DNA of 64,000 nucleotides from a virus: positions 62,001 through 126,000 of the IMG/VR virus record IMGVR_UViG_3300023184_004167; one strand, given 5' to 3'. Of this stretch, positions 54,320 to 61,828 are shown one piece after another. The notes under the pieces were generated by a model. The model did no database searches. It saw only the letters and a program-made list of their open reading frames with translations, and had not been told where the DNA came from. Within the stretch, counting starts at the first letter, position 1; each line of letters opens with the position of its first letter. Made by a program: the position numbers and the translations under genes.

Positions 54320-54955
54320 TTATTTTTGAAAGTATTTCTCAATTCTTTTACTTAATCTAACCCTTGGGTCATTTATATCTCTACCCACATCTTCATATTT
54401 TAATACAAACCCAAAACTTAAAAAAACTCTTCTTGAGTTAAATTCATTTGTCCAATGTTTGTATAAGGAAGCCTCAAATCCGTATAAATCAGTTTCTTCT
54501 ATCTTAATTGTATCATCACCTAAAAATAAATTATAATCTTCCGACAAAACACTAATGTTACATTTATAATTAACATATCCATCAAGAGATGCATCATAAT
54601 GTGGGTTAATTTTTCCCCCTTTATTCATATCAACCGCCTGAAGAAAAATATTATCTTTTGGAAAATTAAATTCTTCTGATATTCTATCAACTATAATATG
54701 AATAAAGTCCGGTAAAGGTTCTTTAGATACATTAGATATTGATTGGAATTTTGTAATATAATTTGTTAATGTTGTATTTGAAATATCAAAAATACAAGAT
54801 TTACCTTTTAATACTTTGGATAATTCTGTAAGATGATAATTACTATCATCACCTATATGGTTAACAGAATCCAACCAATTTACTATTTGGTTTGCCTCAT
54901 CTTTTGAGATGAATTTTTTTTTTATCTTATAAGTTTCCAAGTCCGTATTTACCAA
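54320..54955 (-). CDS. 2-oxoglutarate/Fe(II)-dependent oxygenase-like protein
   Basis: A 211-residue protein. Iron ligands are visible: H119-x-D121 (INPHYDASLDGY) and distal H167 (SLYKHWTNEF), followed by R175/R176 (FNSRRVFLSFGF) for 2-oxoglutarate, in the double-stranded beta-helix order. This resembles prolyl-hydroxylase/AlkB-like enzymes that phages carry to modify nucleic acids or proteins. It overlaps the 88-residue gene by 29 bases and stands between fibre genes, so a virion or host-surface protein substrate is conceivable; DNA repair is the alternative. Confidence 0.72.
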   Translation of the reverse strand: MVNTDLETYKIKKKFISKDEANQIVNWLDSVNHIGDDSNYHLTELSKVLKGKSCIFDISNTTLTNYITKFQSISNVSKEPLPDFIHIIVDRISEEFNFPKDNIFLQAVDMNKGGKINPHYDASLDGYVNYKCNISVLSEDYNLFLGDDTIKIEETDLYGFEASLYKHWTNEFNSRRVFLSFGFVLKYEDVGRDINDPRVRLSKRIEKYFQK

Positions 54956-55219: not shown

Positions 55220-56296
55220 TTAGTCAATTGGTAATCCTAACTTATAATCTGATGTTATATCGCTCCACCCAATACCAAATTGGTATTTCATAACCTTATC
55301 AACAACAACATATGATTCATATTGTGTTGTACCAGTACTAACATCACTATTAATAAAAATACCACTTAAAAAATACACATCATTTTCAGTATTTGCTTCG
55401 GTTGCTGCAGGTAAATTATCAATGATATAATCATATGCAGAATCTCTAATAGTTTCTGTTGCAAATATCATTTGTTGGTTATAAATTTGTTCAGCATTAC
55501 CTGTAAATCCTGTCAATATAGTTCTAACTGGCTCCGCCCATAAAATATCTGTTAATTTCCAAAAAGAATAATTACCATTATCAAATGGTGGATTACTTTG
55601 ACTTGGAGCATCAGTTAATACATTTACAACTTGGTTAATCGCGCCCCAAATAGCACCACAAGTGTTATCAGTTAAACTATCTGATTTACCTCTTCTTAAC
55701 ATTCTACCTGAACGACCATCTTCAGTAACACCAATGTGTGGCATACTTGTCACAAAAAGTGTCCCTGTATTTGTAACATGACTTGCAAATGCGCCAAGAC
55801 CAACACTACCAACAAATGGATAACCAGCCAAACCACCCGATTGAAATGGCCCAAGAAATGAGTTTATACTATTTGGCCATTCACCGATGTTATTAGGTAC
55901 TTTTGATGCATCAACATCATCTGAACAAATACCTTCAGCTAAAATAATATCTGTTGATGGTATACCTTCATTTGTGATATATGATGTTGTATATGTTCCC
56001 CACACTTCAGATAGTACTGCATCCGAAAATGGATATGTTACATCATCAACAGTAATACCTCTTACAGTTAGTGTGTATGCATCCTGCCCATCTAATGGAG
56101 CTGGTACTTCTATTTCATATGTTCTATCATATTCCGCAACCGATAAATCATAGATACCGTAAGGATAATCACTAATGTTATTAAAAGGTATCATTTGAGT
56201 ACCTAAAGAAGTTGAACCACCTGTTGTTGGATAAAAAGTTACATCGGCGGTGGCACCTGATAAATTTGTACTTGTTATTCTAATTCCTTGTATCAT
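55220..56296 (-). CDS. Virion-type beta domain joined to LCIB-like carbonic-anhydrase-fold domain
   Basis: A 358-residue protein. Residues 1-70 (IQGIRITSTNLSGATADVTF, then MIPFNNISDYPYGIYDLSV) look like a phage virion beta-sandwich. Residues about 118-335 match the LCIB/LCIC (limiting-CO2-inducible, beta-carbonic-anhydrase-fold) family: GICSDDV (C124, D126), PFVGSVGLGAFASHV, MPHIGVTEDGRSG (H187), and TDNTCGAIWGA (C213). These supply the Cys-His-Cys zinc set. The Arg of the beta-CA C-x-D-x-R motif is replaced (Val128), so activity is uncertain. It lies between the oxygenase and the solenoid gene. I know no LCIB-like virion protein. Confidence 0.7.
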   Translation of the reverse strand: MIQGIRITSTNLSGATADVTFYPTTGGSTSLGTQMIPFNNISDYPYGIYDLSVAEYDRTYEIEVPAPLDGQDAYTLTVRGITVDDVTYPFSDAVLSEVWGTYTTSYITNEGIPSTDIILAEGICSDDVDASKVPNNIGEWPNSINSFLGPFQSGGLAGYPFVGSVGLGAFASHVTNTGTLFVTSMPHIGVTEDGRSGRMLRRGKSDSLTDNTCGAIWGAINQVVNVLTDAPSQSNPPFDNGNYSFWKLTDILWAEPVRTILTGFTGNAEQIYNQQMIFATETIRDSAYDYIIDNLPAATEANTENDVYFLSGIFINSDVSTGTTQYESYVVVDKVMKYQFGIGWSDITSDYKLGLPID

Positions 56297-56327: not shown

Positions 56328-59300
56328 TTATAATACTAATCCAAAATTTAAATCATTTTCAGGTATGTCTAAAGTTGTAATATCATTACAAGGTGCTTCA
56401 GTTAATGTTTCTATTGTTAACACATCTAATTCATCATAATACGACAATCTATTATCAAGATTTCTATTTTTAAAGATGTTAACCGTTGTTGGTTCGTATA
56501 ACACACCTGTGGTTAAACAAGTATCGCCAACTATGGTATCAACAATATTCCATTGGAAATAATTATCAACAATATTAAGGTTAAAATTATTACTAATTCT
56601 ATTATTATAAAAATGTTCTCCTATTGTATTGGCAATAAAATTATCACCTATAATATTTTTTTGACTTGAGACAGCACCATATCCAAAACTATTACCTATG
56701 GTGTTTCCAGAAAATATATCACCAATATAATTACTTTCAAATTCATTACCAATAGTGTTATACTGAAATCCTATTCCAACAGTATTTGCGCCAAATGAAT
56801 TACCGATAATATTAAAACCAAATGATTCTCCAATAGTATTAAGACTGAAATCGGCACCAACCGAATTTTCTACAAACAAATTACTTATTTTATTACTTAT
56901 AAAATTACCTAAGAAGTCGTTTCCAGTTGTTATGTTGCCAAACGTATTAAATATTGTCTGGCCAGATATTTGATTAGCTGTGAATCCAAGACCTACATTG
57001 TTAAATGCAAATGGTTCTAAAATAAGATTACCTTTAAAACCATAAGATATGTTATTACCCTCAAAATAGTTTAGTATTTGGTTTTCATAACATAAATCAC
57101 CTATTATGTTTTCTATGGTTTCACCTGAAAATTCATTACTATAAAAATTATTACCTATTGTATTACCTGTGAAAAGGATAATAATGGTGTTTTCATAAGT
57201 TTCGTAACCAAACTTATTTCCTTGTACGTTCCCAACTATTGTATTATTGTAAAACGTAAATCCGATAGTATTTCCATCAAATGAACCATCTATAGTGTTA
57301 TCGTGAAAATCTCCTTTCCAATCATTTCCTGTTACAGTACCGCCTGAAAAAATATTACCATATGTATTTAAACCTATTTTATTTCCCTCCGTAAACCCTA
57401 TAATAATATTACCATAAAATCCTGACTCAAATGTATTTTTATCTAAATCATCACCTATTGTATTATTATAAAAATCACTCACCCAAGTATTTCCTAAAAC
57501 CTCACCTAAAAAATCATTACCATGTGTTTCTGACCCAATATTATTGCCGTAAGTAAAACCTGAAAATTGATTTGCATAAACAAAAGAGTCAACATTATTT
57601 AATGAAAATTGTTGACGAATATAATTTCCTTTGAATTGATTAATAATTGTGTTGTTTTCAAAATAACTACCATTATATTGTTGTGTATAAATTGAATTCC
57701 ATTGTGTTCCTTCAGGTGAAACATTTTGATTCCACCCCCCTTCCAAAACCTGATTATAAATTCCACCATTGTTTCCTCTTACCATTTCAAGACGGCTAAG
57801 GATAATAAAATCGGTTTTGTCTTCGTAATTTAATTTTGTAAAATAAACGGTTGGTTCATATGTTGGATACACTTTTGTTCTTTCATATGAAAAACCTCCA
57901 CCATTACTACCTTGTGTCCATTGATTAAATTTAACGGCGTGATACTCATTATAAACAGTTAATTCAGTTACTGTTATTCCACACCAACTACTTGGTGTAG
58001 TTCCTGTTGCGATAAAAATACATCCAACTTCATTGATTGTACCATCTATTACATCAGCGACATTACTAAAATCACTACCGCCAAACGCTACGTTTGTTAT
58101 TTCATATGTCTCACCAACCACCAAATAACCAAAACTTTGTGTTGTGCCTGAATCACGATAGAAATTCATTATAAGTTCTTTACCTAAAATAATATTTCCT
58201 AAATTTTGATTTCCATCGTCACCGTATAATGAATTAAAAAATGTGTTATAAGTTCTTCCTGTTAAATTTTCAATAGTTGTATTATCCCAATTAAAATATT
58301 GAGTATCACCTAAAGTATTATTTTCAAATCGGTTACCAATTTGGTTATTGTTAAATGTATAAGAAATACTATTACTATAAAAATACTCACCGATTTGATT
58401 GTCGTGAAAATAATCTCCAATTAAATCATTATTATTAAATCCATTACCAATGTGATTACCATAAAAATCATAACCTATATTATAGTTACCATTAAAGCCG
58501 TTTCCTATCACATTTTTATAAAAATTACCATTAGCGATATTATCGTTAAATTGATTACCAATTTGATTATTTTGGAAATTTTGTCTAATGATATTATATT
58601 CAAAATTATTTCCTATTCTATTTCTATAAAAATTAAAATCACCCAAATTACCATTGTCACCGATAGTATTGTCATTAAAATATAAACCAATTTGATTCTC
58701 ATAAAAGTCAGAATAAACAGTATTATTATTAAAATTATTACCAATTTGGTTACCATAAAAGTTTCTATAAATTTCATTATTCTCAAAGTACTGTTCAATT
58801 GTATTTTCATACATATAACCTTTAATAATGTTATTATTAAAATATTCTCCAATACTATTACTATAAAAACCATTATTATAAATCACATTATTATAAAATC
58901 TACCCGCAATTGTATTTCTTGAAAACCAATATGTTCCTGTATTGTTATAAGACCTATCTCCTATTGTGTTTGAATAAGTTCTATTACCATAAAACACATT
59001 ATTTGCTAATAAAAATCCTGAAGTACTTCCGATTTCATCAAGATAAAATTTAGAATAATCTCCAACATAGTTATGTATAGCACTTCCATCTAAGTTAAAA
59101 GTCAGATAATCATTGTAGTCCCCTTCATTTTTTTGTCCAATATAAACTTCTTTATATTCGTTAATATCACCTGTTGGTGTTGTTTTGTAAAGAGGAATAA
59201 GTCCGCCAGTAAAGTTTATTTGACTTCCAAATGATGAGTCAACTATTACATATATTAAAGTATTTGTGCTAGCGCTATAAACCTTAACACCCACCATATA

Positions 59301-59951
59301 ACCTTGATACTCAAAAAATAATATGTCCCCAATTTGAGCGTCAGCAAAAAATGATGTTCCGTTACCCAACATTATACCAGTTCCACTATCATAACTGTCT
59401 AAATATCCTACTAATTGAACACCTTTATCATATGACCTAAATCTATTAAAAAATATGGTTCTGTGGTCATAATCGGTTCTATTGTTATATTCATCAATTC
59501 TTTCAGAAATTCTACCATATGCAACACCTTGAGTTATTTCAGTTGCACTAAAAGTCCAATCATATTGGATTCTATCATTTGGATATGCTTGTTGATATGC
59601 GGTTGAACTAATTGTACTAAGACTTGTTGCAAAAACAATAATAGGTTCAACATTAGATTGATTATATTGTATTGCATCACTTCCTTTTGGATTACCATTT
59701 ACGTAATATTCAGGAACATCATAACAAGTTTGAAAATCTGTTATGATATAATAAGCACCCACATTTAATGTACCACCATTAATATTATTTACAAGTTCAG
59801 AATATGTTGTTTCAATAAGTCCGCCAACACTTCCTGTAATGGCAGAAAAGTCAATATGATATGTAGCTCCGTTTAATTCTACGGGTATTAAAGTATCGGG
59901 TGTTGGTATTTCCAGATAAGTTAATTCTCCTATGGTTTTTCCTGTTAACAT
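56328..59951 (-). CDS. Tail spike/fibre with 9-residue beta-solenoid repeats
   Basis: A 1207-residue protein. Two long blocks, about residues 317-550 and 760-1140, repeat F-x-x-N-x-I-G-x-x, with hydrophobic residues alternating every 4 and 5 positions (for example FYGNQIGNNFNNNTVYSDFYEN). This differs from the 5-residue pentapeptide repeat and suggests a narrow right-handed solenoid with Asn ladders. Between the blocks lies a module shared with the 406-residue fibre (GETYEITNVAFGGSDF, GCIFIATGTTPSSWC). A non-repeat head of 300 residues probably attaches it to the tail. TATTTAT lies 19 bases upstream. A host-surface binding or cleaving role is inferred. Confidence 0.68.
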   Translation of the reverse strand: MLTGKTIGELTYLEIPTPDTLIPVELNGATYHIDFSAITGSVGGLIETTYSELVNNINGGTLNVGAYYIITDFQTCYDVPEYYVNGNPKGSDAIQYNQSNVEPIIVFATSLSTISSTAYQQAYPNDRIQYDWTFSATEITQGVAYGRISERIDEYNNRTDYDHRTIFFNRFRSYDKGVQLVGYLDSYDSGTGIMLGNGTSFFADAQIGDILFFEYQGYMVGVKVYSASTNTLIYVIVDSSFGSQINFTGGLIPLYKTTPTGDINEYKEVYIGQKNEGDYNDYLTFNLDGSAIHNYVGDYSKFYLDEIGSTSGFLLANNVFYGNRTYSNTIGDRSYNNTGTYWFSRNTIAGRFYNNVIYNNGFYSNSIGEYFNNNIIKGYMYENTIEQYFENNEIYRNFYGNQIGNNFNNNTVYSDFYENQIGLYFNDNTIGDNGNLGDFNFYRNRIGNNFEYNIIRQNFQNNQIGNQFNDNIANGNFYKNVIGNGFNGNYNIGYDFYGNHIGNGFNNNDLIGDYFHDNQIGEYFYSNSISYTFNNNQIGNRFENNTLGDTQYFNWDNTTIENLTGRTYNTFFNSLYGDDGNQNLGNIILGKELIMNFYRDSGTTQSFGYLVVGETYEITNVAFGGSDFSNVADVIDGTINEVGCIFIATGTTPSSWCGITVTELTVYNEYHAVKFNQWTQGSNGGGFSYERTKVYPTYEPTVYFTKLNYEDKTDFIILSRLEMVRGNNGGIYNQVLEGGWNQNVSPEGTQWNSIYTQQYNGSYFENNTIINQFKGNYIRQQFSLNNVDSFVYANQFSGFTYGNNIGSETHGNDFLGEVLGNTWVSDFYNNTIGDDLDKNTFESGFYGNIIIGFTEGNKIGLNTYGNIFSGGTVTGNDWKGDFHDNTIDGSFDGNTIGFTFYNNTIVGNVQGNKFGYETYENTIIILFTGNTIGNNFYSNEFSGETIENIIGDLCYENQILNYFEGNNISYGFKGNLILEPFAFNNVGLGFTANQISGQTIFNTFGNITTGNDFLGNFISNKISNLFVENSVGADFSLNTIGESFGFNIIGNSFGANTVGIGFQYNTIGNEFESNYIGDIFSGNTIGNSFGYGAVSSQKNIIGDNFIANTIGEHFYNNRISNNFNLNIVDNYFQWNIVDTIVGDTCLTTGVLYEPTTVNIFKNRNLDNRLSYYDELDVLTIETLTEAPCNDITTLDIPENDLNFGLVL
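56532..57674 (-). repeat. Second block of 9-residue coding repeats
   Basis: Encodes about residues 760-1140 of the solenoid protein, with F-x-x-N-x-I-G-x-x units; more divergent than the first block (N-x-x-x-G substitutions). Confidence 0.6.
58302..59003 (-). repeat. First block of 9-residue coding repeats
   Basis: Encodes about residues 317-550 of the solenoid protein, the more regular block. Shadow frames on both strands arise from the repeated AAT/ATT codons. Confidence 0.65.
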
Positions 59952-59995: not shown

Positions 59996-61828
59996 TTAAA
60001 AATTGTTTTCTACCGCCAAGCATATTTCACCACTTTCGGATATTAATCTCGCCATATTTGTAAATGAAATATAGGCATGTCCATTAACTCCCCAAGTTTG
60101 ACCCCAACTATTTTTAATTCTAAATTGTTGTTTAACTATATCAACACCATTTATTACATAAGCATGACCCCCAGCCAAATAACCACCAATACTTATAACA
60201 CCATTTACAGGGTAGAACATATTGTAATACCAATTTGTGCCAACAACCACTGGACCAATATTTAATACTGTGATAATTAATGTATTAACATCAAACGCCC
60301 AATAATATGAGGTTATTTTACTGACACTTTTTAAGTATTTTGCCGCTCCTCTAACTGATGTTCCGTCATAGTTTTCTCCCGGCCATTCATCCACTTTTTG
60401 TGCTTCACGATAAATTAAATCAGGGGGTACAACAGGTTGAATACCACTATGAACTACAGGGCCATCTGAAATCCAATGAGACCAAGCATATCCAACACAC
60501 ATCGGAGTATTTAATTGATTTCCCCACCATACATTATCACCCCAATATTTTGATGTTAATGGTTTGGTAGGTGTAATACTCGGTGTTGGTGTCTTTGTGT
60601 GGGTCGGAGTTGTTGGTAATTTTGTTGGTGTATGACTTGGAGTTATGGGTAATTTTGTTTTTGTGGGTGTTGGACTAACAGAAGGTTTACTTTTAATTCT
60701 AACTAACCAATCATAAAAATTGGATATTAAGTAATTATTATCCCTATCATCTTTAACGTGATTTCTACCTAACTGAAATGGTGAACCCATCATCAATGGA
60801 GTTGGGTTAATAAACATTAAATATATTCCATCATCAACCCTAATATAATCACCATTATTTGTTAGTATTGCGTCAGTTATAACTTGCTCTGTCTCAGTTG
60901 GTGTTGGAGTAGGTGTTGGAGTTTTTGTTTGAGTTGGAGTTGGATTTGGTGTAGGCGGGGGAAATGGGTCAATAAATTTTAAATATATTCCGTCACCAAC
61001 CTGAATATAATCACCATCATTTGTTAGTATCGCGTCTATAATATTTTCTTCGGTTTGAGTAGGTGTTGGTGTAGGTGTTGGGGTAGTAGTTGGCGTTTCA
61101 GTATTAGTTGGAGTGGGTGTTGGTGTTACAAAGAATGATTGCTCTGTTATATCAAAAATATTTGAAAGATAACTTGGGCTAATTGATAAATTAGAGAAAG
61201 TACCAATATCTTTTAAATTGTTAAAGTCGTCAGAAAATAAATAAACATTTGTTTCCCCATATTTGGTTCCTGACATTATTGTTACACCTGTTGAAACAAC
61301 TATTGGAGGCCCAGAATAAACTTGATATGTGTTTGTAAAACTTAATGTAATGTCTGTCGGAACACTTTTGTTAGAGTCTAAAGTATATAAAATATTGATA
61401 GAACCAGAACTAATATATGCAGATAATCTTAATAGTATCCTTGTATTGTCAGGACAACAATTATCCGTTGAAACAAAAGTTTCTTGTATATTAATGAATA
61501 ATTGCTCTTTTAAGGGTAAAATGAGATTTCCCTCATTATTTTGAATAAAGAACTCGGCTTTATATTTTCCGGGTTTGTCAGTATTTCTCGCAGAGAATTT
61601 GTAATAAATGTAGTATTCAGGACTAGAACCATCAGGTAGTATTAAAGGAACAATACTACACGGAGCAAACGCAATCTTTGGAATCCCCGTATTTACATCC
61701 ACCATTGAAAAGTATATGGTAGATGTTTCCAAACTTTCCATTAGAGATTGAAAGTCACTCCTTCCATCACGAATAACCAACATCTTTAATACGGGCAGAT
61801 TCGCACCACTTTTGATAAAAAATTCCAT
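59996..61828 (-). CDS. Papain-like cysteine protease on a Thr-Pro-linked virion protein
   Basis: A 610-residue protein. Residues 1-230 are a beta-rich head; 236-260, 290-314 and 386-425 are Thr-Pro linkers; between the first two and again at 316-342 lies a duplicated module (AILTNDGDYIQVGDGIYL / AILTNNGDYIRVDDGIYL). Residues about 428-610 are a C1 papain-like domain: Q438 with C444 six residues later (NQLNTPMCVGYAW), H555 (GGHAYVINGVD) and N573 (IKNSWGQTWGVNGHAYI), all in canonical order. No signal peptide or pro-domain is seen. Located in the fibre region, it probably displays a protease on the particle; the substrate is unknown. Confidence 0.85.
   Translation of the reverse strand: MEFFIKSGANLPVLKMLVIRDGRSDFQSLMESLETSTIYFSMVDVNTGIPKIAFAPCSIVPLILPDGSSPEYYIYYKFSARNTDKPGKYKAEFFIQNNEGNLILPLKEQLFINIQETFVSTDNCCPDNTRILLRLSAYISSGSINILYTLDSNKSVPTDITLSFTNTYQVYSGPPIVVSTGVTIMSGTKYGETNVYLFSDDFNNLKDIGTFSNLSISPSYLSNIFDITEQSFFVTPTPTPTNTETPTTTPTPTPTPTQTEENIIDAILTNDGDYIQVGDGIYLKFIDPFPPPTPNPTPTQTKTPTPTPTPTETEQVITDAILTNNGDYIRVDDGIYLMFINPTPLMMGSPFQLGRNHVKDDRDNNYLISNFYDWLVRIKSKPSVSPTPTKTKLPITPSHTPTKLPTTPTHTKTPTPSITPTKPLTSKYWGDNVWWGNQLNTPMCVGYAWSHWISDGPVVHSGIQPVVPPDLIYREAQKVDEWPGENYDGTSVRGAAKYLKSVSKITSYYWAFDVNTLIITVLNIGPVVVGTNWYYNMFYPVNGVISIGGYLAGGHAYVINGVDIVKQQFRIKNSWGQTWGVNGHAYISFTNMARLISESGEICLAVENNF
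60554..61123 (-). repeat. Three Thr-Pro-rich coding repeats
   Basis: Low-complexity segments at 61049-61123, 60887-60961 and 60554-60673 encode (Thr-Pro)n linkers that separate the duplicated module and the protease domain. Confidence 0.7.

What the first reader, a model, noticed from the sequence alone, without database searches (positions are those of the whole stretch)
59996..61828. Papain-family protease tethered by Thr-Pro linkers to a phage particle protein
Full C1 triad with oxyanion Gln (Q438, C444, H555, N573) in canonical spacing, no signal peptide or pro-domain, attached via three (TP)n linkers and a duplicated module to a beta-rich head in the fibre cluster. A virion-displayed protease could cut host surface proteins or S-layer, or mature other fibres.
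Basis: partly seen in the sequence, partly recalled or inferred. Interest (0 to 1): 0.72.

Follow-up and report, generated by a model that had tools for sequence, protein, structure and literature searches.

The report
Papain-type protease on phage stalk protein
A phage known only from sequence carries a papain-like protein-cutting enzyme at the end of a flexible stalk protein, in a spot where related phages carry sugar-binding or repeat domains or nothing, which suggests, but does not prove, that the virus particle uses it to cut proteins on the host surface.

Summary
The ORF at 61828..59996 (-) encodes 610 aa with Q438, C444, H555 and N573, three Thr-Pro linkers and a duplicated 22-aa module. 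Residues 419-607 match PHROG 16701 'peptidase' (2.6e-49). The predicted fold of 345-610 is papain-like, closest to xylellain (Z 20.1, 202 aligned).

(1) A conserved N-terminal strap (LGR..D.RD..YLI, residues 353-368) belongs to the peptidase; a Thr-Pro linker separates strap from core. (2) The protease is mobile: 35 viral relatives are C-terminal on a different large 'QNINQY' protein (18, plus one truncated), fused to a small ORF (2) or free-standing (14); none has this head. (3) The head is normally a stand-alone 125-aa protein in this locus (79 of 79); relatives extend it with a LamG-like (L037) or DUF285 tip (L044).

So the protease sits in a swappable tip position of a Thr-Pro stalk gene. 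Display on the particle and cutting of host surface proteins is the best reading (about 0.5), unproven; free-standing relatives, and a C1 enzyme not listed among XacN1's particle enzymes, are the main arguments against.

The parts
59996..61828 (-). whole gene, 610 aa: head, beta domain, TP linkers, protease
61451..61828 (-). residues 1-126, head; normally a stand-alone 125-aa protein in the same locus of related phages
61127..61450 (-). residues 127-234, second predicted beta-sandwich (Ig/Calx-beta-like arrangement, Z at most 6.6); related segment in L002
61049..61126 (-). Thr-Pro linker 1, residues about 235-260
60971..61036 (-). module copy 1, residues 265-286 (DAILTN..GIYL.FI)
60887..60961 (-). 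Thr-Pro linker 2, residues about 290-314
60809..60874 (-). module copy 2, residues 319-340; close to where DNA similarity switches from L037 to L002/L003
60725..60772 (-). conserved N-terminal strap of the peptidase, residues 353-368 (LGR..D.RD..YLI)
60548..60676 (-). Thr-Pro linker 3, residues 385-427, between strap and core
59999..60547 (-). papain-type (C1A, xylellain-like) catalytic core, residues 428-610; Q438, C444, H555, N573
56328..59951 (-). next gene: 1207-aa protein with NN.IG.xF repeats, conserved next to the protease half in L002/L003 and next to the LamG version in L037
61845..63518 (-). preceding gene: HtrL_YibB-type protein, found in 77 of 79 head loci

Best explanation
The gene encodes a stalk protein: a small beta-rich head that most likely docks to the tail or baseplate, a second beta domain, flexible Thr-Pro linkers, and a C-terminal papain-type cysteine peptidase of the short xylellain type. 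The protease occupies a tip position that relatives fill with a LamG-like lectin domain or a DUF285 repeat domain, or leave empty. I infer that it is displayed on the particle and cuts proteins in the host's outer layer, matrix or surface appendages during adsorption, a protein-cutting counterpart of polysaccharide-depolymerase spikes. The strap, kept although a long linker now separates it from the core, probably docks back on the core and helps folding or masks the active site. Shown here (by sequence, prediction and comparison): fold, catalytic set, selection, strap conservation, domain swapping and locus. Inferred: particle location, active enzyme, host target, role of the strap.
For: Protease identity. 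Catalytic residues kept; dN/dS 0.05-0.15. Same head and locus with other C-terminal tips: L037 (Laminin_G_3 E=0.0017, below cut-off; PHROG virion structural protein 2.1e-7) and L044 (DUF285 2.2e-51). Head-only gene in related phages: 79 of 79 loci also hold DNA polymerase, 77 of 79 the HtrL_YibB-type gene. DNA chimera: 82-87% to L002/L003 in pieces from about 54.5 to 60.8 kb (74% in one short piece), about 80% to L037 from 60.97 to 64.0 kb. The protease core nests among QNINQY-fused cores (96/85). Strap kept in free-standing phage and cellular relatives. Other TP proteins in the same genome.
Against: No particle proteomics; the head matches no Pfam or PHROG family and its model is weak. The head + protease combination is seen once. 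14 of 35 relatives are free-standing and two are fused to a small ORF of unknown role, so the enzyme can work without a stalk. The C1 peptidase of XacN1 is not among the enzymes the paper lists as found in particles. No signal peptide is evident, so nothing beyond particle attachment or lysis would take it outside. An exposed catalytic Cys is prone to oxidation (general knowledge).
Confidence: 0.5

Rival explanations
1. Maturation protease: it acts in the infected cell and trims fibre or TP-linked proteins (itself included) during assembly; the stalk brings it to its substrates.
For: Found within fibre-like clusters, including a free-standing copy in L020 next to structural-looking genes and a stand-alone head gene. 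TP linkers are flexible and could be cut. Jumbo-phage peptidases that track virion type are thought to process viral proteins (PMC7824862, passage).
Against: Syntenic genes with LamG or DUF285 tips have no protease, and 7 of 15 QNINQY proteins end without one (2 more run off the contig), so the fibres do not seem to need it. No cleavage site was identified.
Confidence: 0.17
2. Host-attack or lysis-stage protease: it digests host proteins inside or at the end of infection, and the fusion is a chance or storage arrangement.
For: Many relatives are free-standing; L028 lies near endolysin-like genes on the other strand; Streptomyces phage Wakanda has it two genes after terminase; XacN1's C1 enzyme is not listed as found in particles.
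Against: Of the 21 fused copies among the 35 relatives, 19 (one truncated) are C-terminal on large modular proteins, and in the window it was joined to a head whose other extensions look like binding domains.
Confidence: 0.2
3. Inactive binding domain: the papain fold is used as an adhesin without catalysis.
For: It stands where other loci have lectin-like or repeat domains.
Against: Q, C and H invariant, N nearly so in 23 rows; strong purifying selection.
Confidence: 0.06

Closest known systems
Xylellain (PDB 3ois) and short bacterial C1A peptidases
   Same: best fold match (Z 20.1, rmsd 3.5, 202 aligned, 21% identity), best profile match (2.3e-17), short form with N-terminal strap region
   Different: phage domain lacks a stretch that xylellain has in the middle, is a C-terminal module of a multidomain protein, and has a Thr-Pro linker between strap and core
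C1 family peptidases of Caudoviricetes (PHROG 16701; XacN1 ORF382, Stenotrophomonas RAS14/CM1, Streptomyces Wakanda/BillNye)
   Same: same catalytic domain, 34-42% identity for these; acquisition of xylellain-type C1A by Myo- and Siphoviridae is in print (PMC10380794, passage)
   Different: the three whose sequence and surroundings I examined (XacN1, RAS14, Wakanda) are free-standing proteins of about 220-240 aa, not fused to a stalk
Modular phage receptor-binding proteins and depolymerase spikes
   Same: conserved N-terminal part with swappable C-terminal module
   Different: the module here is a peptidase; no trimeric spike architecture was shown; the cited example cuts exopolysaccharide (PMC8262889, abstract in the search listing only)
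Tail-associated NlpC/P60 enzymes
   Same: papain-like fold, sometimes tail-associated (PMC7824862, passage)
   Different: those cut peptidoglycan peptides; this domain matches C1A cathepsin-type enzymes

Membership tests
Peptidase family C1A (papain) | oxyanion Gln, then Cys, His, Asn in this order | tested here: met
   Q438, C444, H555, N573; conserved in 23 rows except N to Q in two
Peptidase family C1A (papain) | curated profile score over cut-off | tested here: met
   PF00112 22.0 bits, cut-off 20.7
Peptidase family C1A (papain) | papain fold | tested here: met
   AF2 core pLDDT mostly 88-98; Z 20.1 to 3ois, 16-17 to cathepsins and falcipain
Peptidase family C1A (papain) | peptidase activity | not testable with these tools
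   needs purified protein
Xylellain-type short C1A | closest structural relative is xylellain, no long pro-domain | tested here: met
   short strap only, motif of 16 residues
Xylellain-type short C1A | N-terminal segment that covers the active site (recalled for xylellain) | tested here: inconclusive
   strap conserved and modelled with block pLDDT about 69-84; its position over the cleft was not measured
Phage receptor-binding / fibre protein | conserved N-terminal anchor with variable C-terminal tip | tested here: met
   window, L037, L044 share the head and differ at the C-terminus
Phage receptor-binding / fibre protein | present in the particle | not testable with these tools
   no close isolate found; head has no match in 50,697 phage records
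BppU-like N-terminal baseplate domain | recognisable family or fold match | tested here: inconclusive
   no Pfam or PHROG match to the head; fold matches generic, Z at most 6.6; likeness is recalled only

The most novel reading that the evidence does not exclude
The phage particle carries a papain-like protease as an exchangeable tip: a protein-cutting analogue of depolymerase spikes that opens protein layers or removes protein receptors, with a strap tethered through a Thr-Pro linker that masks the active-site Cys until contact.
Probability: 0.35. Interest if true: 0.75.

Novelty: new variant of a known kind. Interest (0 to 1): 0.52.

Why it matters
Surface enzymes on phage particles are known mostly as polysaccharide or peptidoglycan degraders (general knowledge). 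A true protease in an adhesin slot would mean that phages also open protein layers or strip protein receptors, and the natural set of empty, LamG, DUF285 and protease versions of one gene is a ready-made comparison for what the tip does.

Tried and rejected
Chance motif: rejected. Pseudoenzyme: made unlikely by conservation and dN/dS. Naming the head: no Pfam match (E up to 1, other heads) and no Pfam or PHROG hit over residues 1-126; no phage-record match; structure matches are weak (Z at most 6.6; BFVD best 5.7e-7 to an uncharacterised phage protein), so a recalled likeness to BppU-type domains stays a lead. NCBIfam: nothing for the window protein. PHROG scan of L026 and L020 neighbours and of the window's 112-aa ORF: nothing, so I do not claim that L026's C1 lies in a named baseplate operon. 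QNINQY protein in the window's own record: no match, none in phage records. The idea in print: searches gave no paper on a papain-type protease on a phage fibre, in the listings or in the passages read; the library lacks most subscription papers. First tree lost 8 of 32 rows to my motif rule; the second has all 32. In one search my pattern misread L004 as N to Q; the alignment shows NSWG.

Full report
What is there. The window is positions 62001-126000 of a 138,365-base virus record. The ORF at 61828..59996 on the minus strand gives 610 residues. The C-terminal part matches Pfam Peptidase_C1 just above its cut-off (22.0 against 20.7 bits) and PHROG 16701 'peptidase' strongly (2.6e-49, residues 419-607). 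An AF2 model of residues 345-610 built on 23 aligned rows has core blocks mostly at pLDDT 88-98 (the weaker ones 76-83); Foldseek's best PDB match is xylellain, 3ois (2.1e-9), and VIA-align gives Z 20.1, rmsd 3.5 over 202 residues, ahead of falcipain and cathepsins at 16-17. A profile of the family finds 3ois at 2.3e-17. This is a C1A-type peptidase.

Conservation. Q, C and H are invariant in 23 aligned sequences and N is at least 90%; N is Q in L027 and L033. dN/dS between the window core and L002, L003, L004, L005 and L021 is 0.09-0.15 by NG86 and about 0.05 by YN00 for L002 and L003; YN00 failed for the other three. The domain is maintained like an enzyme, though activity is not shown.

The strap. 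The relatives aligned carry, ahead of the core, a short motif of the form LGR..D.RD..yLI, which degenerates in the most distant one (L036); a related segment stands in cellular relatives such as L050 and L051. In free-standing enzymes it opens the protein. In the window it is residues 353-368, and a Thr-Pro linker (residues 385-427) lies between it and the core; L002, L003, L004 and L018 have a linker at the same place. So 'no pro-domain' is only partly right. Xylellain's N-terminal segment is recalled to cover the active site; that paper was seen only as a citation. Whether the strap covers the cleft here was not measured.

Where the protease goes. Of 35 viral loci, the protease is C-terminal on a large protein beginning QNINQY or similar in 18, on a truncated copy of such a protein in one (L025), fused to a homologue of the window's 112-aa ORF in two (L005, L008), and free-standing in 14. 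None of the 35 has the window's head. Of 15 QNINQY loci found by their N-terminus, six carry the protease, seven end without it and two run off the contig (L059 is the same contig as L006, and L062, L063 and L073 look like near copies). In a 32-row tree the window core nests with L002, L003 and L004, all QNINQY fusions (96/85). Phage records with a match: 51; three were looked at in context and are free-standing.

The head. The first scan with the head found two relatives, a later one three and, with five sequences in the profile, 521 before the cut to 80. In the 79 loci read from that last scan (the eightieth, L042, is the contig of L037) the head is a stand-alone protein of 125 or 126 residues in every case; all 79 also hold the DNA polymerase gene and 77 of 79 the HtrL_YibB-type gene that precedes the head in the window. 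Counting also the window, L037, L038, L044 and L020, three of 84 heads are extended. These are the closest 80, so the true share of extended heads is not known. The extended ones are the window (protease), L037 (LamG-like: Laminin_G_3 E=0.0017, below cut-off; PHROG virion structural protein 2.1e-7) and L044 (DUF285, 2.2e-51). By eye L037 has three copies of the DAILTN-type module (sequence); the window has two.

How the gene arose. DNA similarity to L002 and L003 is 82-87% in most pieces from 54.5 to 60.79 kb, taking in the carbonic-anhydrase-like gene, the 1207-aa gene and the protease half; similarity to L037 is about 80% from 60.97 to 64.0 kb (head half and HtrL_YibB-type gene) and again in the 1207-aa gene. 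The switch falls at the second module and linker 2. This is what a tip swap through repeated linker DNA would leave (inference).

Is it on the particle? Indirect signs say yes: the swappable tips, the Thr-Pro linkers shared with other proteins of the genome in fibre-like clusters, a DUF285 protein of the same build upstream, and a glycine-rich protein matching PHROG 'tail fiber assembly' (3.3e-12). Against: the head has no family match and a weak model (mean pLDDT 68), no close isolate was found, free-standing copies exist, and in XacN1 the text lists chitinase, lipase and an M23 peptidase as found in particles but not the C1 peptidase ORF382 (PMC5852040, passages). Absence from a list is weak evidence.

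What it most likely does. I rate display on the particle with cutting of host surface proteins at about 0.5, a cytoplasmic or lysis role at 0.2, fibre maturation at 0.17, a non-catalytic adhesin at 0.06.

Novelty. Xylellain-type C1A enzymes in tailed phages are in print (PMC10380794, passage), as are modular phage tips (PMC8262889, abstract in listing). I found no paper on a papain-type protease in such a tip slot (listings and passages only). New variant of a known kind.

Noticed in passing
window 55220-56296 (-): 358-aa protein with an LCIB-type beta carbonic anhydrase domain (PF18599, 2.2e-29) in the same cluster; relatives also in L002 and L003 and in 4 of 79 head loci. A search for such a phage enzyme in print gave nothing clear in the listing.
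   Followed up: partly
L074-L152 (head gene); window 61451-61828: A 125-aa uncharacterised beta-rich protein beside an HtrL_YibB-type gene and DNA polymerase, with 521 or more viral relatives and no Pfam match.
   Followed up: partly
L057 and L058, 5758-6444: C1-like proteins of two Solirubrobacter genomes in which the GPVV..GGH-type part stands before the Cys part, looking like a circular permutation or shuffling.
   Followed up: no
L027 and L033: Catalytic Asn replaced by Gln (QSWG) with the rest of the site kept.
   Followed up: no
L049 846-9497 (own genome, next to the window): Row of proteins that by eye look like glycosyltransferases and methyltransferases beside the stalk genes; they might decorate Thr-Pro linkers (idea only).
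   Followed up: no
L049 9579-11096 (-): 505-aa protein with another head, Thr-Pro linkers and DUF285 tip (4.7e-45) in the same genome.
   Followed up: partly
BFVD entry A0A6J5R7S5: A phage protein named peptidase S8/S53 matched the head model weakly (E 0.0093, 114 columns); possibly a different protease on a similar head.
   Followed up: no
window 54320-54955 (-): 211-aa protein that looks like a 2OG-Fe(II) oxygenase by eye; not tested.
   Followed up: no
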